Part shown: positions 20,457 through 40,865 of the stretch, one piece after another | Numbering within the stretch: position 1 is the stretch's first letter | Layout of the letters: each line of letters starts with the position of its first letter | Source of the DNA: Lachnospiraceae bacterium A4 | Lineage (GTDB): Bacteria; Bacillota; Clostridia; Lachnospirales; Lachnospiraceae | Assembly: GCA_000403215.2 (NCBI GenBank) | Contig: KE159565.1 | Location: forward strand, 98,738-142,621 | Direction of reading: 5' to 3' | Length of the DNA stretch: 43,884 nt | Notes under the pieces: model-generated | The model's database searches: none | Seen by the model: the letters and a program-made list of their open reading frames with translations, nothing else | Told to the model about the DNA's origin: nothing | Made by a program: the position numbers and the translations under genes

Positions 20457-20623
20457 ATGGGGAAAAAGTATGAGTACGATACGCTGATTCATGAAATACC
20501 GGAAAAAGGCGGCGCCTATGTGATTTTTCCGTGGAATATCCGCAAGGAGTTTGGAAAAGGACGCGTCAAGGCGCCGGTGACAGCGTTCATATGGTAGTGG
20601 AGGAAAAAAATTATAAAATGTAG
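20457..20623 (+). pseudogene. DUF1905 protein remnant with internal deletion and frame change
   Basis: ATG 20457 has a good AGGGAGG site and encodes the N-terminal part of a DUF1905 protein (GGAYVIFPWNIRKEFGKGRVK). It then shifts to a stop at 20597 after 46 codons. In another frame from 20576, GDSVHMVVEEKNYKM and a stop at 20623 match the expected C-terminus of the same family. The middle of the domain, roughly 45 codons, is missing, with the junction near 20570-20578. DUF1905 proteins are small beta-rich proteins of unknown role. The shortened peptide may still be made, but the domain is broken. It lies just before the Agr-type kinase gene. Confidence 0.75.
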
Positions 20624-20636
20624 AGGGGGAAGCAAT

Positions 20637-21989
20637 ATGCCTTTTGGATTTCGGCTGACAGTTGTTGTGATACTGATGGCGGTGGAAGCTTATACCGTAT
20701 TTCGTATTACGGTGGCGCTCTTGGGCGAGCGGCCGCGCTGGCGGTGTTATCTGTTGTTTTATGTGGTGTACAATGCACTGGAGTGGGGACTGATTTTGGT
20801 ATTGGAGTTGTTTGAGGGGAATACATGGACAGAACCGCCACTGTGGATTCATGAGCTGGAATACATTTTGACAGTGTTCTTTTTGTGTATGACGATCAGA
20901 AGGGGATACCATGTTTCGTTTGACAAGGTGTTTGGCGCTGTGGCGGTGGGCTTTTTTGCGAAGGATATCATTTATGATTTCCTGACCGATGCGGCGGTGT
21001 TTTACTCTCCTGTTTTTGATGGAAAGTATCTCTATGTCATAACATCAATTGTGCTGCCATACAGCCTGCTGCTGGTGTTCTCACTGGTGACTTCATTTGT
21101 GCTGAATAAGACAGAGTTTTCTAAGTATTTCTTGTGTCTGTTTCGGGGGCGTGTGCGGACTGGGGTCACACTGTCTGCCTGTCTGCTGCTGCTCACTGTG
21201 AACGCGCTGCGGCAAGTGCTTTTTCCAGACGTGGCGATCAGCTTTGCGTATGGTTTGTTTTGTTTTAGCGTGGTGATCGCGGCGCTGTTTTGCATTCAGT
21301 TCAGCGCGATGTATGTGGCGAGCCGCGATAAGGTCAAGGCGCAGGAGGAGACGATCGCCCAGCAGCAGGCGCACATGGAGCTGCTCGAAGAGCTTCAGGG
21401 AGAGATCCGCGCGTTTCGGCATGATTTTACAAATCTCTTATCGGGGATGGCATTGTCCGCACAGGAGGGGGACGTGGAAGCGATTCAGGAGTTTATGCGG
21501 CGCACCAGTGGGTACTTTGATGAAAAGCTGGGCAGCGAGATTCGGCAGATGGAGGGGTTGTCCAACATTCAGCTCTATCCAGTGCGCAGTCTGATTTCCA
21601 CGAAGCTCAGTCTGATGCGGCAGCGGCACATACAGGTCACACTCGAAATCATGAAGCCAGTCACAGGGGGACGTATGCCGGTTGAGGACCTGCTGCGCTG
21701 TCAAGGGATTCTGCTGGACAATGCGATTGAGGCGGCAGCCAAAAATGATGGGAAAATACGGGTGATTTTATTGCAGGATATGGAGGAGCTGTTCATAGCG
21801 GTTGCCAACAACTATGATGAAAAGCCGAATCTCGGCGCCCTTGCCAAAAGCGGATACTCCACCAAGGGCAAAGGGCGCGGGACAGGGCTGTCCAGCTACA
21901 GGAGAATGGTTTCCCGCTGCGCGGACTGTGTTTCGCGCACCTATCTCAAGGACGAGTTTCTCGTGCAGGAGCTGCGGATTCCAGTGTAG
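20637..21989 (+). CDS. Agr/VirS-type sensor histidine kinase (GHKL)
   Basis: This 450-residue membrane kinase has about six hydrophobic segments in residues 1-225 and a coiled coil (~230-255). The phosphoacceptor motif is EIRAFRHDFTN (His262), the N-box is CQGILLDNAIEAA and the G-box is GKGRGTGLSS. This is the architecture of AgrC-like kinases, which usually sense cyclic peptides. No agrB or agrD gene is visible nearby, so the ligand is open. GGGGGAA precedes ATG 20637. It heads a run of five genes and is paired with the LytTR regulator 20 bases downstream. Confidence 0.92.
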   Translation: MPFGFRLTVVVILMAVEAYTVFRITVALLGERPRWRCYLLFYVVYNALEWGLILVLELFEGNTWTEPPLWIHELEYILTVFFLCMTIRRGYHVSFDKVFGAVAVGFFAKDIIYDFLTDAAVFYSPVFDGKYLYVITSIVLPYSLLLVFSLVTSFVLNKTEFSKYFLCLFRGRVRTGVTLSACLLLLTVNALRQVLFPDVAISFAYGLFCFSVVIAALFCIQFSAMYVASRDKVKAQEETIAQQQAHMELLEELQGEIRAFRHDFTNLLSGMALSAQEGDVEAIQEFMRRTSGYFDEKLGSEIRQMEGLSNIQLYPVRSLISTKLSLMRQRHIQVTLEIMKPVTGGRMPVEDLLRCQGILLDNAIEAAAKNDGKIRVILLQDMEELFIAVANNYDEKPNLGALAKSGYSTKGKGRGTGLSSYRRMVSRCADCVSRTYLKDEFLVQELRIPV

Positions 21990-22009
21990 TGTATTTGAGG
22001 GGGGATAAG

Positions 22010-22741
22010 ATGGTTCCAGTGTACATATGTGATGATGAGGCGGCGGTCAGTGCGCTGCTTGAAAAGCTGATTGGCGACCAGATTATGATCATGGGGCGGG
22101 ATATGGGACCGCTGCGGGTGGCTAGTCATCCGCCCGCGCTGTTAGAATTGCAAAAGCAGGCGCAGATTCCGGCAATTTATTTTCTGGACATTGACTTTCC
22201 GGGATATATGAGCGGTCTTGAGCTTGCGGTGAAGCTCAGAGAGTATGATCCGCGCGGATTTATTGTGTTTATTACAGCCCACGACGACATGATGTTTGAG
22301 ACCTTCCGCTATCGTCTGGAGGCGCTGGACTATATCGTGAAGGGGGCGCCCGCGATGATGGCAGCGCGCGTGAATGCGTGTCTGGAAAGCGTCTGTGAGC
22401 GCATGATGAATGAGCCGGACGGGAAAACGGCATACTGCACTTTAAAGGTATACGACACAGTGCGTCATATTCCGATGCAGAAGATCTTGTATTTTGAGGC
22501 GGTGGGCAGCCGTCATACGCTGGTGCTGCACATGGATGATGAGGTGCTGGAATTTAACAGCAGCCTGAATCATTTTGAGGAGAAGCTGGGCGGAGACTTC
22601 TGGCGGTGCCACCGCAGCTATCTGGTCAACCGCGCCAGAATCAGCAATGTGCGGCTCAAGGAAAACTTTGTAGAGCTTGATAATGGGGAGACATGTCTGC
22701 TGTCGCGCAAGGCGAAATCGGCGTATGCCGCTTCGGTGTAG
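22010..22741 (+). CDS. LytTR-family response regulator (AgrA-like)
   Basis: This is a 243-residue regulator. The receiver domain (1-~125) has the acidic pocket CDDE, phosphoacceptor Asp60 in YFLDIDFP and a conserved Lys in YIVKGAP. The C-terminal LytTR DNA-binding domain (~135-240) has ILYFEAVGSRHTLVLH, WRCHRSYLVN and NGETCLLSRK. ATG 22010 is preceded by AGGGGGGAT, so the in-frame start at 21989 is unlikely. It is the cognate partner of the kinase upstream. LytTR proteins bind direct repeats; I found only one half-site-like ACAGTTGTT (20343-20351) upstream of the operon. Confidence 0.93.
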   Translation: MVPVYICDDEAAVSALLEKLIGDQIMIMGRDMGPLRVASHPPALLELQKQAQIPAIYFLDIDFPGYMSGLELAVKLREYDPRGFIVFITAHDDMMFETFRYRLEALDYIVKGAPAMMAARVNACLESVCERMMNEPDGKTAYCTLKVYDTVRHIPMQKILYFEAVGSRHTLVLHMDDEVLEFNSSLNHFEEKLGGDFWRCHRSYLVNRARISNVRLKENFVELDNGETCLLSRKAKSAYAASV

Positions 22742-22759
22742 GTGTGTGCATGCGGCATA
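22724..22759 (+). promoter_or_regulatory. RNA stem at the end of the LytTR gene
   Basis: TATGCCGC (22724-22731) and GCGGCATA (22752-22759) are perfectly complementary with a 20-base loop that contains the LytTR stop codon. There is no T-run, so it is not a normal terminator. It could act as a processing or stability element between the two-component genes and the downstream genes. Confidence 0.35.
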
Positions 22760-22781
22760 AGAGGTATTCGTGGGAGAACAG

Positions 22782-23186
22782 ATGAAACGGATTTCACAAA
22801 GAACGTTGCGAAGGATATTTTGGGTGGCAGGTGTGCTGTGCCTGTTTTGGGTCTTGGGAGGATGGAAAGTGCCGATTGTCTGGCAGATAGAGACACTGCG
22901 CCTCCCCCAAGATTGTAAAACGGTATATCATACCAAAATAAGGGTGTCTGATGTGTACTGGCTTCATACAAAAGGAGAAAAAGTTATCCAATGTGAAATG
23001 GGTTATGAGGCGGTAAAGGCATATGTGGAGGAACATAATTCGGAGACTGCGCTTGAATATATTCAAATTTATCCATATGAAGGAATGTCAGATCTTGCAA
23101 TCTACGATTCGCAATATGATGAGGCATTTTGGCAGCAGCCAGACCAAGAGACGTATATTACAATCAGTTACTTTAAGAAATGGTAG
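22782..23186 (+). CDS. Small membrane-anchored or secreted protein of unknown function
   Basis: This 134-residue protein starts MKRISQRTLRRIFWVAGVLCLFWVL, a basic N-terminus followed by one hydrophobic helix, so the remaining ~105 residues are predicted to lie outside the membrane. ATG 22782 is preceded by GGGAG; a GTG at 22770 in the same frame is less likely. The outer part has no cysteines beyond one Cys in each half (DCKTVY, IQCEMGY) and no motif I recognise. It lies between the LytTR gene and the receiver-alarmone-synthetase gene with short gaps, so it may feed a signal to the kinase or be a target of the system. Confidence 0.75.
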   Translation: MKRISQRTLRRIFWVAGVLCLFWVLGGWKVPIVWQIETLRLPQDCKTVYHTKIRVSDVYWLHTKGEKVIQCEMGYEAVKAYVEEHNSETALEYIQIYPYEGMSDLAIYDSQYDEAFWQQPDQETYITISYFKKW

Positions 23187-23208
23187 ATTAGAAATAAAGG
23201 AATAAACA

Positions 23209-24288
23209 ATGCAAAAGATATTGGTAGTGGACGACGCGGAGATAAACCGCGAATTATTGAGAGAGTTCTTGGAAGTGGACTACATCGTCGAGACGGCGGA
23301 GAACGGCGGGCAGGCGCTGGCGATGCTGCGTGCGCAGCATAGTGAGATTTCAGCGCTGTTACTGGATTTGCATATGCCGCATACAGACGGCTTTGCGGTC
23401 ATTGAGCAGATGCGGAAACAGGGGTGGATGGAGCGCATTCCGGTGCTGATTATCAGCAGTGAACACGCGGTAGAGGCGGAGAACAAATGCTTTGAATTGG
23501 GCGTGTCGGATTTTATTCACAGACCATTTGTGGACTCTATTGTCAAGAACAGGGTCAGAAATACAATCGAGCTTTTTAACTGTAAGAACCAGTTAGAACG
23601 AAAGATTGAAAAGCAGTCTGAGACTTTGCGCAGACAGGAGCAGATCATCAAGATACAGGCAGAGCAGCTCAGCACGGCAGAGTCGTTTAACAGGCTGATG
23701 ATGGAGTACCGTTCTGTCATCATGGAGGTGGAGACAAGGCTGAAAGTGCTCAATGCCATGTTTTCTGAGCAGTACAAGAGAAACCCGTTCGAGTCGATTA
23801 AGAGCCGTTTAAAGAAGCCGGAGAGCATTTACAAAAAGCTCGTGCGCAAGGACTGCCCCGTCACGGTTGAGAATATTAAAGAACATATTGCAGATGTCGC
23901 CGGACTGCGGGTGATTTGCTCGTTTCCAGACGATATCTATCGTCTGGAGAAGCTGCTGCTCAAGCAGGACGATATTATTTTATTGAAGAAAAAAGACTAT
24001 ATCAAAAACCCGAAATCCAATGGCTACCGAAGTCTGCACCTGATCTTGAGCGTGCCTGTTTTTCTGCCGGACGAAAAGAAGTACATGAAGGCAGAATTGC
24101 AGTTTCGGACGATTGCCATGGATTTCTGGGGAAGTCTCGAGCACAAACTAAAATACAAGAAAAATATCAACAATACAGAGGAGATCGAGCGGCAGCTCAA
24201 AGCGTGTGCGGATTCGATTGAGGCGTTAGATCATCAGATGCAGGAAATACGGGATAAAATCGACCAGTCGGAGGGAGAATGCCGATGA
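23209..24288 (+). CDS. Response-regulator receiver fused to a (p)ppGpp synthetase (RelA/SpoT) domain
   Basis: This protein has 359 residues. The receiver domain spans 1-~120, with acidic pair Asp8/Asp9, phosphoacceptor Asp53 (LLLDLHMP) and Ser83; the usual Lys-Pro is Arg105-Pro106 (FIHRPF). A coiled-coil linker (~125-185) follows, then a small-alarmone-synthetase domain (~186-320). Synthetase residues are intact: Arg200 and Lys203 (SRLKKPESIYKK), Asp229 in DVAGLRV, Tyr273 in NGYRSLH, and Glu296-x-Gln298-x-Arg300 in ELQFRT. No hydrolase (HD) domain is present. It should transfer pyrophosphate from ATP to GDP/GTP under phosphorylation control, presumably by the kinase of this operon. The next gene overlaps it by ATGA, so the two are translationally coupled. 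Confidence 0.92.
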   Translation: MQKILVVDDAEINRELLREFLEVDYIVETAENGGQALAMLRAQHSEISALLLDLHMPHTDGFAVIEQMRKQGWMERIPVLIISSEHAVEAENKCFELGVSDFIHRPFVDSIVKNRVRNTIELFNCKNQLERKIEKQSETLRRQEQIIKIQAEQLSTAESFNRLMMEYRSVIMEVETRLKVLNAMFSEQYKRNPFESIKSRLKKPESIYKKLVRKDCPVTVENIKEHIADVAGLRVICSFPDDIYRLEKLLLKQDDIILLKKKDYIKNPKSNGYRSLHLILSVPVFLPDEKKYMKAELQFRTIAMDFWGSLEHKLKYKKNINNTEEIERQLKACADSIEALDHQMQEIRDKIDQSEGECR

Positions 24289-24764
24289 GGGAAATTATTT
24301 GCTTCCACAATCCTGATGAAAACAATGGATATCTCAGCAATTGGTATCGTTGCGATTTTTCGGCGGAGGGTATTCGGTACTCCTCTATGGAGCAGTACAT
24401 GATGTACCAGAAGGCGGTGCTTTTTCGTGATATAGAGATGGCAGAACAAATCTTAGCGACAGACAATGTGGGAAAAATAAAGGCACTTGGGCGGTCAGTC
24501 CGAAACTATGAGGAGATCGTCTGGAATGGTATGCGCCAGATCACCGTTTATCGGGGACTTTGTCAGAAATTTGAGCAGAATGCAGCGCTGAAAAACAAAC
24601 TTCTGGCGACACGGGACAGTATTTTGGCAGAGTGTGCAGTTCAGGACAAAATCTGGGGAATTGGTCTTTCGATGAAGGATGAACGGCGGTTTGATCTCAA
24701 AAGATGGCAGGGACAAAATTTGCTTGGATTTTCATTGATGCAAGTGCGTGCTGTACTGAAATAG
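24285..24764 (+). CDS. NADAR-domain (YbiA-like) protein
   Basis: This 159-residue cytosolic protein starts MREIICFHNPDENNGYLSNW. Family features are YSSMEQYMMYQKAVLF near the N-terminus, GRSVRNYEEIVWNGMRQ in the middle and IWGIGLS near the C-terminus. NADAR proteins are N-glycosidases that act on ADP-ribosylated guanine or related intermediates, and some counter toxin-made ADP-ribosylation. YbiA-type members act on a riboflavin precursor. ATG 24285 overlaps the stop of the alarmone synthetase (ATGA), with GAGGGAG seven bases upstream. That coupling suggests it works on nucleotides made or affected by the synthetase. The exact substrate is unknown. Confidence 0.9.
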   Translation: MREIICFHNPDENNGYLSNWYRCDFSAEGIRYSSMEQYMMYQKAVLFRDIEMAEQILATDNVGKIKALGRSVRNYEEIVWNGMRQITVYRGLCQKFEQNAALKNKLLATRDSILAECAVQDKIWGIGLSMKDERRFDLKRWQGQNLLGFSLMQVRAVLK

Positions 24765-28346: not shown

Positions 28347-30761
28347 TTAACCAGCCATATAAAGCCCGTCGAACACGTCCAGCACATTCTTTTGCAGTTC
28401 GACGACCTCGAAGTTCTCCAAGTGTACCCAGCCCTGTTGTCCGTCTTTTGTTTCCAGAAGTATCCAGTTCCAGTCGGCGGAGGTCTGTAGGAAACGCACG
28501 CTTTGCGGGTCTATGGTAAAAGTGTCGTCTGCCCCGACAGCAGTGTGCAGGGGCAGCGCATCATATAACTGCACCCAGTTTCTGCTCGTAAAATCATATA
28601 CGTCCTGCGGAATTTCTTCCAGCAGTCCGTTTGGGCCAAGCTGCCAGCGCACAGTAATCCAGTCGGTCTGCACGATTTCTTTGCGGATTGAGCTTGTGAT
28701 AATGCCGTCGGAGGAAATATCGCACCGGCGGATATCAGCGTCAAAACCGCCGATTTCAGTGAGTTGTCCATTCTGATATTGATAAAAATGCGTGTACGGG
28801 TCGGCGCTTGGACCGTCCTCATAGAGCGCCAGCAGGATCGTTTGTCCGTCAAGGCTGAGTCCCCAGAGGATATTGGCGACATTGTATCCAAAGCTTTCCA
28901 GCGCTGCGCTGCCGATTTGCAGGTGGTAATATGCCAGTGGGTCATCTTCCCGGTAGTACTCTAAAGCCTCGGGAGACGTGGAGGGCGAGAGCGTTACTTT
29001 TTCCGCAGTGCCATCACCGTCCATGTCCAGATAGGCGATATTCTGTCCGCGAAGCCTGTTGGAAAGATTGACGAGTGAGCCAGTGTTTTGCAGGACAGAC
29101 TGCGAAACGCCAAGTCCAAACTGCTGTTGCTCAGCTTCCGTCAATTGCGTGATGTTTTTCTGATTGAATACCACGTCTTTGTCCGTGTAGAGCATCATGG
29201 TGTCAACAGTATCGGGATAACTGTAGTAAATCTTTATCATGCCATCATATAACCAGAAGTCTGAAATAAGGGCGTTTTCCCGCACCATCGGCAGGTCGCC
29301 TGTCTGTAAAGAATCTAGGTCAATCCAGCGGATTGTATTGTCAGCCCAGTCGAGTGCGCCTTCTGTATAGGTACGGTCTGTCTTAAAATAAAGCTTTTCT
29401 TCAAATACGGTCATCTGTATATTGGTTCCCGCAAACCCTGCATAAATCTGCTCGGCGGCAGAAGCATTTTCGGCTTTTCGGAAAATACCGTTGTCGCCTG
29501 ACTGATACGTGACGCCATTGTATTCTAGTTCATCATAGATTTCGTTGTTTTCAAGAACTCCAGTTTGGATTCCGGCAGGCGCGTTTTCTGGCAGGACTGT
29601 TGTATCAGGCGCAGTGGGTGCCGGCGCCGTTAAGAGATGGTCTGTACTGCTTGCTGTCGGCGCCGTGTCGTCTGTGCCCGGATTGGCGTCGTCTGATGCT
29701 GTCGGATTGGTTTTGGGTGTGTCCGCAGAGGAGACCGCCGGCGTGGTGAGAAAGACGCCGCAGCCGACAGCGGAGAGCAGCACAATCAGCACCGAAACGG
29801 CGGCAAGTGGTTTTTTGTACGCGAGAATCCGCTTGATTCTGCCTTTGATATTGTTTTCACCAAATGAGATCGGTGTTGGGAAATTGTTCTTTTGCCGCCA
29901 GCTTTTGGATGCTGCCAGTGCCAGCAGGGATTCGCTGTAGTCTGCTTTTTTGTCCTCGCCAAGACGTGCGAGCACTCTTTCATCGCATGCTTTTTCCAGT
30001 TCTCCCTGAAAGATTTTGTACATAAACCATAGAAAAGGATTGAACCAGTGTATGCTGATGATGACAAAAGATACCATTTTCCAGACAGGGTCAAGATAGC
30101 GGATATGCATTTTTTCATGAAGAAGAATGTGTGCTTTTTGCTGCTCAGTCAGTGCTGGTATCAGATAGATTCGCGGTCGGAGGATACCTGTCACGCAGGG
30201 AGAGGGAATGGCGTCAGTCTCGTATATCCCTCTGCACAGCCGCATGGAGAAGCGCAGCCGGTATTTTAGCCGCAGGCAGGAGAGCAGCGCCCAGAGCCAT
30301 AGGAGAATCATTCCGGCCAGCCATATGCGGGAGCCGGCGGTCAGGAATCGTTCATAGGAAGTTTTTGCTGGCTCGATGCCGCCGTTTGCACGTTCGTAGT
30401 AGTATGTCATCTTATTGCCGTTTGCGTTGGCGGCGATGGGACTGCCAGCGGCGACAGCACGGTCGTATTCATGACTGCCTTCGAGGGCTGTCTTATAGTT
30501 TCCGCTGTAAGTGTGATCGGCGCTGAGCGCACGTTCAAGCTGGCTCGGAAGGGCGGTATTGCCAAGCTGGAGAAGGCTTATGCTGGAGGACACAGAGAGC
30601 GGAACGACGAGGCGCAGCGCCACCAGTCCCCAGAGCACCATGGATATCCATCGCGACGTCCGTGTATAGTTGACGAGCACACAGATCAGTATCACGCCGC
30701 ACCCAATAGAGCCATAAAAACTCAGGCGCAGCACCTCCTCAAAAAGTTTTTCTATCAGCAT
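28347..30761 (-). CDS. BlaR1/MecR1-like M56 membrane metalloprotease with large extracellular domain
   Basis: This 804-residue protein has N-terminal membrane helices (~12-30, ~36-60 and ~145-163), a cytosolic zinc protease with HEKMH (215-219) and the downstream ELEKACDERV, and a last membrane helix (~312-335). A Thr/Pro/Ala-rich linker (~340-395) and an extracellular region of about 400 residues follow, ending in a beta-rich, SH3-like domain (QQGWVHLENFEVVEL). It lacks a penicillin-binding domain, so it does not sense beta-lactams the way BlaR1 does. It likely releases the partner BlaI-type repressor on envelope stress. ATG 30761 lies two bases after the blaI stop, with GGGGGA. Confidence 0.9.
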   Translation of the reverse strand: MLIEKLFEEVLRLSFYGSIGCGVILICVLVNYTRTSRWISMVLWGLVALRLVVPLSVSSSISLLQLGNTALPSQLERALSADHTYSGNYKTALEGSHEYDRAVAAGSPIAANANGNKMTYYYERANGGIEPAKTSYERFLTAGSRIWLAGMILLWLWALLSCLRLKYRLRFSMRLCRGIYETDAIPSPCVTGILRPRIYLIPALTEQQKAHILLHEKMHIRYLDPVWKMVSFVIISIHWFNPFLWFMYKIFQGELEKACDERVLARLGEDKKADYSESLLALAASKSWRQKNNFPTPISFGENNIKGRIKRILAYKKPLAAVSVLIVLLSAVGCGVFLTTPAVSSADTPKTNPTASDDANPGTDDTAPTASSTDHLLTAPAPTAPDTTVLPENAPAGIQTGVLENNEIYDELEYNGVTYQSGDNGIFRKAENASAAEQIYAGFAGTNIQMTVFEEKLYFKTDRTYTEGALDWADNTIRWIDLDSLQTGDLPMVRENALISDFWLYDGMIKIYYSYPDTVDTMMLYTDKDVVFNQKNITQLTEAEQQQFGLGVSQSVLQNTGSLVNLSNRLRGQNIAYLDMDGDGTAEKVTLSPSTSPEALEYYREDDPLAYYHLQIGSAALESFGYNVANILWGLSLDGQTILLALYEDGPSADPYTHFYQYQNGQLTEIGGFDADIRRCDISSDGIITSSIRKEIVQTDWITVRWQLGPNGLLEEIPQDVYDFTSRNWVQLYDALPLHTAVGADDTFTIDPQSVRFLQTSADWNWILLETKDGQQGWVHLENFEVVELQKNVLDVFDGLYMAG

Positions 30762-30763
30762 AG

Positions 30764-31138
30764 TCAGTCCCCCTCTTTCTTTATGCGGCTTTGGTCAATG
30801 AGACGCTGTATCTCATCCGCGTCCTTATCGCTGAGTGTTTTTCCTTTCGTGAAAGCGGCGATAAAGGCGGGCAGGGAACCGCCGAAGGTGTCTGCGACAA
30901 ACTGCTCGCTCTGCCGCTTGTGAAAATCCTCCTTGGGTATTTGCACAAGGACTGTGCCGTTGTCATTCTGAAAAATACCGCGCTGGCAGAGGCGTTTTAA
31001 CATGGTGTAAGTCGTTGTGCGTTTCCAGCCAAACGCCTCTTGACATGCTTTGACCAAGTCCCCTGTGCGAATGGGCGCAGATGCCCATATCATCTCCGCG
31101 AAGCGGGTTTCCATCACGCCTAGTTTGTTTTCGTCCAT
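30764..31138 (-). CDS. BlaI/MecI/CopY-family transcriptional repressor
   Basis: This 124-residue winged-helix repressor starts MDENKLGVMETRFAEMIWAS. It contains TTTYTMLKRLCQRGIFQND, the typical recognition helix and wing, and a C-terminal helical dimerisation part rich in charged residues. GGAGG precedes ATG 31138. It is the first gene of a two-gene operon with the M56 protease, its probable antirepressor. The tandem dyads at 31257-31296 in the promoter are the likely binding sites, giving autorepression. Confidence 0.92.
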   Translation of the reverse strand: MDENKLGVMETRFAEMIWASAPIRTGDLVKACQEAFGWKRTTTYTMLKRLCQRGIFQNDNGTVLVQIPKEDFHKRQSEQFVADTFGGSLPAFIAAFTKGKTLSDKDADEIQRLIDQSRIKKEGD

Positions 31139-31256
31139 TGTTGATTCCTCCTTCTTGGCTTTTTGGTGTGAAGATAGTAAATATGATGCAAAAATGTGAT
31201 GTTTTTTGCTGTTTGTGCAGCTATTTGGGGTTGAAATAGTTTCATAAGGACTGTTG

Positions 31257-31309
31257 TGTCTAATAATGTTAGACAACTATAGCCTAATACTATTAGACAC
31301 ATTTGTCAA
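31257..31309 (-). promoter_or_regulatory. BlaI-type promoter with two tandem operators
   Basis: On the minus strand TTGACA (31309-31304) and TAGGCT (31286-31281) are 17 bases apart. Two dyads overlap them. One is CTAATA-C-TATTAG (31284-31296), between and over the boxes. The other is TGTCTAA-N5-TTAGACA (31257-31275), just downstream. Their centres are about 24 bases apart. Both share a TCTAATA-like half-site, so one BlaI-type dimer per dyad is plausible. Confidence 0.7.
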
Positions 31310-39479: not shown

Positions 39480-40865
39480 ATGGGAACGCAGTTGGAATGG
39501 AATGAACGGTATAATATTGGGGTAGAAGTGATTGACAGAGAGCATAAAAAGCTATTTAGCATTCTCAATAAACTGTTTGATTTGGGACATCAGGAGGAAA
39601 AAAGCCACTGGGTCTGTCAGGAGGCAGTCAAGTACTTTAAGGAACATGCGGTTCAGCATTTTGCAGATGAGGAGGAGTATATGGCGCTCATTCATTATGA
39701 GGGACTCAAAACACACCAGCATATTCACAAAAATTTCCGCGAAAGAACGCTTCCTGCACTTGAGAAAGAGTTGGAGCGTACAGGCTACTCCGAGGAATCG
39801 GTCCGCCATTTTCTCAGCGTGTGCGCAGGCTGGCTGATTGGACATACATTGCTCGAGGACCATGCGATTGTGAGTGGGGAAACAATAAAGCACTGGGAAA
39901 ATTTGCTGCCCGATGAGGAGCAGGCAGTGATGGGACAGACCGTTGCAAGCCTGCTGCACAGCATGTTTCAAGTGGACCCGCGCCTGCTCAGCGACTGTTA
40001 TGGAGGAGAAAAGTTTGGAGACGGCATCTATTACCGCTTGATTGCTGTTTCCAAGGAAAAGAAACGCTGGGAGTTTTTCTTGATTTTTGAGGAAAAATTT
40101 ATAGCGGGCACGATTGGCAGTGTCATGAATATCAAATCTGACGCGGTAAAAGCGATGCTGCTGCACGCGGCTGGCTATGTGGCAAGGCAGTTTGTAGAGC
40201 GCATTAAGCGGTGTTTTCCATCGTTGCAGCAGTTTGAGCTGAAAGAGGAACAGCTTTTGTCTTACGGGCAGTTTGAATTGGTATATGAGAAGCAAAGCCC
40301 GCAGTTTAGTATGCTGTTTGACACCGGAAAAGGGTATTTCGCCTACTGTATGACTTCCTCGGACCAGCTCGAAAGTACAGACGGCGCCGAGATGATTGCC
40401 GACGATGCAATGAAGGAGGTCCAAAAGAGTTTAAACCAGCATGGCAAAGAGCAAGTGGCGGCAGCGCCAAGAAAGAAGCTTTTGATCGTGGACGATTCGG
40501 ATTTTATACTTCGTACCATGCAGGATTTGTTTGCCGCTGACTATGACGTGGCGACAGCAAGGTCTGGCATGTCCGCGATTCGGAGTATGGCAGTCAGCCG
40601 TCCTGACTTGATTCTGCTGGATTATGAGATGCCTGTCTGCAATGGCAAGCAGGTGCTGGAAATGATACGCTCAGACCGGGAATTTAATGACACGCCTGTC
40701 ATGTTTTTGACGAATAAGGTTGACAAAGAGAGTGTCAAAAAGGCGCTTGCGCTCAGACCCGAAGGATATCTGTCCAAGTCGCTGCCGCCCGAAGCGATTA
40801 AAAAAGAAGTAGCGCATTTTTTTGCACAGAAGAAAAAGCGGGAAACGCACAAGAGCGAAGCATAA
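39480..40865 (+). CDS. Bacteriohemerythrin - CheX-like - receiver fusion protein
   Basis: This cytosolic protein has 461 residues. Residues 1-~135 form a bacteriohemerythrin with diiron ligands His22 (DREHKKLF), His60 and Glu64 (HFADEEEYM), His79 and His83 (HQHIHKNF), His122 and Asp127 (HTLLEDH). Residues ~145-310 look like a CheX/CheC-type phosphatase-like domain. Residues ~335-455 are a receiver (LLIVDDSDFI, LILLDYEMP). AAGGAGAAAG precedes ATG 39480. The order suggests that oxygen or iron sensing by the hemerythrin affects phosphotransfer, most likely in chemotaxis. Phosphatase residues in the middle domain were not verified. Confidence 0.85.
   Translation: MGTQLEWNERYNIGVEVIDREHKKLFSILNKLFDLGHQEEKSHWVCQEAVKYFKEHAVQHFADEEEYMALIHYEGLKTHQHIHKNFRERTLPALEKELERTGYSEESVRHFLSVCAGWLIGHTLLEDHAIVSGETIKHWENLLPDEEQAVMGQTVASLLHSMFQVDPRLLSDCYGGEKFGDGIYYRLIAVSKEKKRWEFFLIFEEKFIAGTIGSVMNIKSDAVKAMLLHAAGYVARQFVERIKRCFPSLQQFELKEEQLLSYGQFELVYEKQSPQFSMLFDTGKGYFAYCMTSSDQLESTDGAEMIADDAMKEVQKSLNQHGKEQVAAAPRKKLLIVDDSDFILRTMQDLFAADYDVATARSGMSAIRSMAVSRPDLILLDYEMPVCNGKQVLEMIRSDREFNDTPVMFLTNKVDKESVKKALALRPEGYLSKSLPPEAIKKEVAHFFAQKKKRETHKSEA

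What the first reader, a model, noticed from the sequence alone, without database searches (positions are those of the whole stretch)
20637..24764. Agr-type two-component system with a receiver-(p)ppGpp-synthetase fusion and a NADAR protein in one operon
Five consecutive plus-strand genes have gaps of about 20-40 bases and one ATGA overlap: GHKL kinase, LytTR regulator, membrane-anchored protein, receiver-SAS fusion, NADAR. The fusion keeps Asp53 and the synthetase residues and lacks a hydrolase domain. The model is inference: the kinase phosphorylates both the LytTR protein and the receiver-SAS protein, switching alarmone production by an external signal, and NADAR processes an ADP-ribosylated or guanine-containing product. 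I know of no described system that joins these parts.
Basis: partly seen in the sequence, partly recalled or inferred. Interest (0 to 1): 0.85.

Follow-up and report, generated by a model that had tools for sequence, protein, structure and literature searches.

The report
Receiver-controlled alarmone synthetase in gut Lachnospiraceae
A bacterium carries one protein that joins the signal-receiving switch of a two-component system to an enzyme that, by its sequence, makes the starvation alarm nucleotide ppGpp; the fused protein is conserved in many related species, but the neighbouring genes proposed as its partners are not.

Summary
The five-gene "system" does not hold up. The fusion (23209-24288) is a conserved, sharply bounded family: 74 full-length relatives plus the window keep the phospho-acceptor Asp (75/75) and a nearly complete RelP-type active site. 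One continuous helix with a heptad pattern joins the domains. In a family sample of 299 genomes, 9 have the fusion, with a clear score gap to stand-alone SAS; in class (245) and phylum (299) samples only the window's own genome shows it at the cut-offs used. Neighbours vary. NADAR is beside it in 1 of the 72 relatives with enough downstream sequence, an AgrC/LytTR pair in 5 of 64 with enough upstream sequence; the closest relative (L008) has no partner gene. The NADAR belongs to a candidate defence family (PDC-M42C) that elsewhere sits with DUF3990 proteins. Most likely: an orphan response regulator whose output is (p)ppGpp synthesis, probably gated by phosphorylation from a kinase not yet identified. 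I found no description in the papers searched. Activity and phospho-control are inferred.

The parts
23209..24288 (+). Receiver-small alarmone synthetase fusion (REC-SAS), 359 aa: receiver 1-108, continuous helix 109-156, RelP-type synthetase 158-357
   Evidence: Pfam, PDB sequence match to S. aureus RelP 6ewz 4e-55, family alignment, AlphaFold2 model and Foldseek match to RelP
23365..23367 (+). Asp53 codon, predicted phospho-acceptor (invariant in 75 of 75)
23521..23523 (+). Arg105 codon: stands where 65 of 75 family members have Lys; Arg in 10 of 75 including the window
23533..23676 (+). Helix 109-156, with heptad pattern between receiver and synthetase
20637..21989 (+). AgrC-type GHKL histidine kinase (neighbour; not a conserved partner of REC-SAS)
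22010..22741 (+). AgrA-type LytTR response regulator, probable cognate partner of the kinase (inferred from adjacency)
22770..23186 (+). Small protein with one N-terminal hydrophobic segment; not found next to any relative
24279..24764 (+). NADAR protein of candidate defence family PDC-M42C, without DUF3990 and PDC-M42B companions beside it

Best explanation
The core is the receiver-SAS protein alone. It is an orphan response regulator whose output domain is a RelP-type (p)ppGpp synthetase. A histidine kinase, possibly of the hybrid kind and not yet identified, phosphorylates Asp53. The change travels down the extended alpha5 helix into the first helix of the synthetase, which in RelP forms part of the tetramer interface, and so alters assembly or activity. 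An external or metabolic signal would then change alarmone levels directly, in parallel with the long RSH that the genome also has. Shown here: domain make-up, conserved residues, purifying selection, one fused family, lack of stable neighbours. Inferred: catalysis, product, phosphorylation, direction of control, identity of the kinase. The AgrC/LytTR pair, the small protein and NADAR are local neighbours, not parts.
For: 75 of 75 sequences keep Asp53, Asp9 and Ser/Thr83; 74 of 75 keep Asp8 and one has Glu; position 105 is Lys in 65 and Arg in 10. Residues aligned with S. aureus RelP R78, K80, S84, K88, D107, Y151, E174 and H190 are invariant, R112 in 74 (one X), and the RelP-type G-loop proline in 75 of 75 (RelP roles from PMC5794853). 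Best PDB matches by sequence and fold are RelP. AlphaFold2 mean pLDDT 86.4, one helix 109-156 followed by helix 158-189. Linker length is 37 in 70, 30 in 3 (exactly one heptad less) and 33 in 2 of 75. dN/dS window vs L009: receiver 0.039, helix 0.029, synthetase 0.037. Family sample: 9 of 299 genomes match positions 1-354/355 at 642 bits or more; the next match is 349 bits and SAS only. Hybrid HisKA kinase as the gene directly upstream in 3 of 64, 7 bases away in L061; HisKA-type kinases in the held flanks of 25 of 74 relatives, all 27 on the same strand as REC-SAS. The genome also has a long RSH and two stand-alone SAS.
Against: No activity or phosphorylation was measured. pTM is 0.56, so the arrangement of the two domains is not fixed by the model. 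In the window and nine others the receiver's conserved Lys is Arg, which could alter signal transmission. The position aligned with RelP R91 varies (60 R, 7 K, 6 L, 2 Y). In three other comparisons the receiver is less constrained than the synthetase (L008 0.122 vs 0.050; L077 0.079 vs 0.052; L011 0.144, synthetase synonymous sites saturated). Two linkers differ by four residues, not a heptad. The kinase leads are weak: positions differ, several loci share synteny, and two of the three upstream gaps are over 350 bases. Distribution is patchy: the one other sampled genome of the same genus (G196) has no full-length match.
Confidence: 0.65

Rival explanations
1. One reading: the adjacent AgrC-type kinase phosphorylates both the LytTR protein and the receiver-SAS protein, and NADAR processes a product of the same pathway.
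For: Tight gene spacing and a 4-10 base overlap in this genome; the kinase/LytTR pair also lies upstream in 5 of 74 relatives, all in the window's 9-member clade.
Against: The sister sequence L008, and L077, lack kinase, LytTR, small protein and NADAR; NADAR is adjacent in 1 of 74; in L011-L014 other genes separate the pair from the fusion. The kinase has a LytTR gene next door. NADAR belongs to a separate candidate defence family.
Confidence: 0.06
2. The receiver works without phosphorylation, as a dimerisation or docking module that holds or places the synthetase.
For: Lys105 is Arg in 10 of 75, including the window; no kinase sits at a constant place; the receiver is less constrained than the synthetase in the L008, L077 and L011 comparisons.
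Against: The pocket Asp residues and Ser/Thr83 are kept in 75 of 75, apart from one conservative D8E, and the receiver is under clear purifying selection (dN/dS 0.04-0.14).
Confidence: 0.15
3. The synthetase domain is a toxic or defence-type SAS (tRNA pyrophosphorylation or ppApp) used against phage.
For: Partial match to PADLOC candidate PDC-S33 (residues 131-307, 9.4e-23); toxSAS families exist (abstracts in the listing); the NADAR neighbour is of a candidate defence family.
Against: Sequence and fold nearest to RelP with its G-loop proline and Tyr; no recurrent small neighbour that would serve as antitoxin (most frequent neighbour cluster in 13 of 71 loci, DNA polymerase III delta); no phage or plasmid record covers 80% of it.
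Confidence: 0.08

Closest known systems
RelP (SAS2, YwaC) small alarmone synthetases
   Same: Synthetase domain: about 45% identity to S. aureus RelP over some 195 aligned columns; aligned ATP, catalytic and G-loop residues conserved, except that the R91 equivalent varies
   Different: RelP is a single-domain protein; here a receiver and a heptad-bearing helix precede it
Response regulators with second-messenger enzymes as output (PleD/WspR type REC-GGDEF; WspR recalled)
   Same: N-terminal receiver, helical linker (linker of WspR recalled), nucleotide-making enzyme; PleD is among the best receiver matches
   Different: Output makes (p)ppGpp by homology rather than c-di-GMP; unrelated fold
Dual-domain SAS RelZ (RNase HII-SAS) of Mycobacterium smegmatis
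   Same: An SAS fused to another domain (PMC7591505 passages; PMC3153485 passages)
   Different: RNase HII or DUF429 domain, not a receiver; no two-component link
Staphylococcal-type AgrC-AgrA
   Same: GHKL kinase plus LytTR regulator side by side
   Different: Scores far below the AgrC and AgrA equivalog cut-offs (121.5 of 500; 141.9 of 400); no AgrB among the 19 window ORFs scanned with Pfam
PADLOC candidate system PDC-M42 (DUF3990, PDC-M42B, NADAR)
   Same: The NADAR here matches PDC-M42C at 3.6e-80
   Different: No DUF3990 or PDC-M42B match among the window proteins scanned

Membership tests
RelP-type small alarmone synthetase | ATP/Mg and catalytic residues (SaRelP R78, K80, S84, K88, D107, R112, E174, H190) | tested here: met
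   Invariant in 75 sequences, R112 equivalent 74 plus one X; the R91 equivalent is R in 60 of 75, including the window
RelP-type small alarmone synthetase | G-loop Tyr and RelP-specific Pro | tested here: met
   Y273 and P268 in 75 of 75
RelP-type small alarmone synthetase | No hydrolase (HD) domain | tested here: met
   Pfam scan shows receiver and RelA_SpoT only
RelP-type small alarmone synthetase | Single-domain protein | tested here: not met
   Receiver and linker fused in front, one open frame in the window and 74 relatives
RelP-type small alarmone synthetase | Homotetramer; (p)ppGpp synthesis | not testable with these tools
   Needs purified protein
Response regulator | Acidic pocket (D8/D9), phospho-acceptor D53, Ser/Thr83 | tested here: met
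   75 of 75 except one D8E
Response regulator | Conserved Lys (position 105) | tested here: inconclusive
   Lys in 65 of 75; Arg in 10 of 75 including the window
Response regulator | Phosphorylation by a cognate kinase | not testable with these tools
   No kinase at a constant place; hybrid kinase directly upstream in 3 of 64, HisKA-type kinase in held flanks of 25 of 74
Agr quorum-sensing system | AgrC and AgrA at equivalog level | tested here: not met
   Below NCBIfam cut-offs
Agr quorum-sensing system | AgrB and AgrD genes | tested here: inconclusive
   No AgrB among 19 window ORFs scanned with Pfam, not the whole window; a short AgrD peptide was not searched for
PDC-M42 candidate defence system | NADAR of family PDC-M42C | tested here: met
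   3.6e-80
PDC-M42 candidate defence system | Adjacent PDC-M42A (DUF3990) and PDC-M42B | tested here: not met
   No match among the neighbouring proteins scanned on either side; the genome's one DUF3990 is on another contig

The most novel reading that the evidence does not exclude
A branch of Lachnospiraceae has wired two-component (perhaps phosphorelay) signalling straight into alarmone synthesis with a single protein, so that a phosphorylated receiver, rather than a starved ribosome or transcription, sets (p)ppGpp output; a heptad-phased helix transmits the signal into the RelP tetramer interface.
Probability: 0.5. Interest if true: 0.8.

Novelty: new variant of a known kind. Interest (0 to 1): 0.6.

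Why it matters
Stand-alone SAS enzymes such as RelP and RelQ are described as differing in transcriptional profile and in the stress signals they depend on, with pppGpp allostery in RelQ but not RelP (PMC5794853). A receiver fused to a RelP-type enzyme would be a direct post-translational input from signal transduction into the stringent response, and a ready-made switchable synthetase whose control could be tested with one Asp mutation. The case also shows how a NADAR from a candidate defence family can turn up beside an unrelated gene and suggest a false operon story.

Tried and rejected
Operon as a functional unit: rejected on synteny. NADAR as alarmone-processing partner: rejected on adjacency (1 of 74) and on its own family's context. 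Own promoter shared by relatives: the 300 bases upstream of REC-SAS do not align usefully among the window and its eight closest loci, so nothing learned. Consensus promoter scan: 9 sites against 5.8 expected, not informative. Mobile element carriage: no plasmid or phage record covers 80% of the protein; the matches listed there are to the synthetase part. Cognate kinase by synteny: only weak leads; besides the AgrC-type pairs, tblastn gave low-identity LytTR-regulator matches in L024 and L040 (27-30%), a weak kinase match in L105, and Pfam gave OmpR-type regulators directly downstream in 3 of 67. The membrane protein: no PDB match and only sub-cut-off NCBIfam scores.

Rows dropped: from the 79 loci, five without a full-length match (L079, L080, L083, L085, L086); itself kept the best 80 of 145 relatives. 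L023 and L073 left out of alignment A1 for unknown residues. L010, L017, L031 and L074 left out of the neighbour lists because the simple ORF picker chose an overlapping frame; they are. Several loci are cut by contig ends: of 74, 10 have under 2.7 kb upstream and 2 under 550 bases downstream; of the 71 loci (window included), 6 have no upstream and 2 no downstream gene. The seven REC-SAS regions fetched are partly the same contigs as earlier loci (L105 has the contig length of L045's contig), so they are not counted as independent.
Full report
Observation. The five plus-strand genes are present at the stated places, with short gaps and a fusion/NADAR overlap of 10 bases (4 if the second ATG is the start). 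Pfam gives GHKL kinase, receiver-LytTR, no family for the small protein, receiver plus RelA_SpoT, and NADAR.

What the fusion is. The synthetase half is nearest to S. aureus RelP and B. subtilis RelP/YwaC by sequence (4e-55 for the best) and by fold (Foldseek 1.7e-21, TM-score 0.90 normalised to RelP). A scan of one genome per species in GTDB 220 gave 145 relatives, of which the best 80 were kept as 79 loci; 74 match over the full length. Aligned with the window (75 sequences), the receiver keeps Asp53 75/75, Asp9 75/75, Asp8 74/75, Ser/Thr83 75/75 and Lys or Arg at 105 (65 Lys, 10 Arg; the window has Arg). The positions aligned to RelP residues R78, K80, S84, K88, D107, R112, Y151, E174 and H190 as described in PMC5794853 (parts 1 and 2 of 5 read) are conserved (R112 equivalent 74 plus one X), and the RelP-specific G-loop proline is present in 75 of 75; the exception is the R91 equivalent, which is R in 60, K in 7, L in 6 and Y in 2. 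There is no hydrolase domain.

How the halves are joined. The AlphaFold2 model (73 rows, mean pLDDT 86.4, pTM 0.56) shows receiver helix alpha5 running on as one helix, 109-156, directly before the first synthetase helix, 158-189. Hydrophobic residues at 133, 140, 147 and 154, and conserved residues at 122, 129, 136, 143 and 150, fall on two heptad phases. The distance from Phe123 to Phe160 is 37 in 70 sequences, 30 (one heptad less) in 3 and 33 (not a heptad step) in 2. In RelP the N-terminal helix stabilises the medial tetramer interface (PMC5794853). This makes signal transfer from receiver to tetramer a natural inference. The low pTM means the domain arrangement itself is not established.

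Selection. Between the window and L009, dN/dS is 0.039 for the receiver, 0.029 for the helix and 0.037 for the synthetase; the neighbours LytTR, NADAR and kinase are at 0.095, 0.100 and 0.146 (a simple counting method, synonymous sites near saturation). Against L008 the three parts give 0.122, 0.018 and 0.050, against L077 0.079, 0.052 and 0.052, and against L011 0.144, 0.044 and not measurable. So the receiver is constrained, but in these three further comparisons less so than the synthetase.

Distribution. In a family sample of 299 genomes (298 genera), 9 have a match over positions 1-354/355 with 642 bits or more; the next best match has 349 bits and covers the synthetase only. In a class sample of 245 and a phylum sample of 299, only the window's genome has a full-length match at the thresholds used, 1e-85 and 1e-90; strongly diverged fusions would be missed, and only the best few candidates per genome were scored. 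The other sampled genome of the same genus has only a synthetase-part match listed. No plasmid or phage record covers 80%. The window's genome also has a long RSH (788-aa frame) and two other SAS genes nearest to RelP.

Neighbourhood. By tblastn and profile scan, NADAR is next to REC-SAS in L009 only, of 74 relatives (72 have at least 550 bases held downstream). An AgrC-type kinase with LytTR is near it in L009 and L011-L014 (5 of 74; 64 have at least 2.7 kb held upstream), with AAA-type genes in between in L011-L014. The small protein was found nowhere. On the tree the window's sister is L008, which has none of the four; L077 has none either. Across the family the gene sits beside varied, often housekeeping genes. 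Downstream: DNA polymerase III delta in 11 of 67, redoxins in 5, YgbB in 4, class I tRNA synthetases in 4, OmpR-type regulators in 3. Upstream: Coat F in 6 of 64, competence protein in 3, hybrid histidine kinases in 3 (L061 at 7 bases; L064 and L081 at 409 and 371 bases).

Kinase leads. HisKA-type kinases occur somewhere in the held flanks of 25 of 74 relatives, 27 genes, all on the strand of REC-SAS, at distances from about 10 bases to 5 kb. Several of these loci appear to share synteny (for example L069-L073), so they are not independent, and I have no background rate. They are leads, not proof.

The NADAR. It aligns with residues described in PMC11543638 (passages read): the pattern of E43, K50, E125, D130 and W133 matches E38, K45, E118, D123 and W126 here, through the alignment with 8bau (the two-residue offset to the paper's numbering, and so which chain that is, is my inference). 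It is above the TIGR02464 cut-off and matches PADLOC PDC-M42C at 3.6e-80. PMC11125620 (abstract and passages) reports guanosine de-ADP-ribosylation by several NADAR/YbiA proteins. In 150 family genomes, 15 (own included) have a match to it at 1e-30 or better. Of the 14 loci returned there (one of them the window's own), six carry a companion gene of about 140 aa, and in four of these six a piece of a second shared gene is also in view. In the two loci scanned with PADLOC (L111, L113) the three gene types were tested: A and B match in both, C was tested and matches in L113; DUF3990 is confirmed by Pfam in L111, L113 and L114. No SAS gene was found in the held flanks of the 13 other loci. The two nearest NADARs (L107 75%, L108 69%, the latter with an in-frame stop) have no such companion in their held flanks. 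So the window NADAR looks like a solitary member of a candidate defence family that landed behind REC-SAS.

Literature. In the listings no title or abstract start shown describes a receiver-SAS fusion; searches show only part of the papers that matched. Passages of PMC10601699 and PMC6416229 do not either. The RSH survey PMC3153485 (passages) says SASs are in general single-domain, with DUF429-carrying actRel as exception; PMC7591505 (passages) describes RelZ and Tas1 as fused cases. The later SAS classification paper (PNAS 2020, recalled) is not held. The claim of novelty reaches no further than these.

Verdict. Observation confirmed; the system of five parts is not supported; the fusion alone is a conserved, coherent protein family that plausibly makes (p)ppGpp synthesis the output of a response regulator.

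Noticed in passing
L007 (G000:C12:218990-222385): The genome's third NADAR (142 aa) lies between a gene resembling nicotinamide phosphoribosyltransferase and one resembling NAD synthase (names recalled from sequence, no family scan), an NAD-salvage-like cluster.
   Followed up: no
L111, L112, L113, L114, L115 (and L109): Operons with NADAR, a PDC-M42B-like gene and, where in view, a DUF3990 gene, which look like an ADP-ribosyltransferase-type toxin/antitoxin or defence module; a paper search for DUF3990 with NADAR found nothing.
   Followed up: partly
27 HisKA-type kinase genes in the flanks of 25 of 74 REC-SAS loci (for example L061, L064, L081): All lie on the same strand as REC-SAS; whether this exceeds the genomic background was not tested.
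   Followed up: partly
L096 305-1960: One open frame of 552 aa that appears to join a glycosyltransferase-like N-terminal half (recalled resemblance) to an SAS domain.
   Followed up: no
L095 1137-2597: One open frame of 487 aa that appears to join an SAS domain to an SGNH-hydrolase-like C-terminal half (recalled resemblance).
   Followed up: no
L083 935-3621: A stand-alone SAS gene directly followed by what look like an OmpR-type regulator and a histidine kinase, a possible unfused counterpart of the receiver-SAS idea.
   Followed up: no
window 39480-40865 +: Hemerythrin domain at the N-terminus and a receiver domain at the C-terminus in one 461-aa protein.
   Followed up: no
window 20457-20597 +: Short 46-aa ORF before the kinase that recalls a truncated DUF1905 protein; Pfam gives no match.
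   Followed up: partly
window 28347-31276 -: A BlaI-like penicillinase repressor gene next to an 804-aa gene whose N-terminal half resembles BlaR1-type metallopeptidases (recalled, not scanned with Pfam).
   Followed up: no
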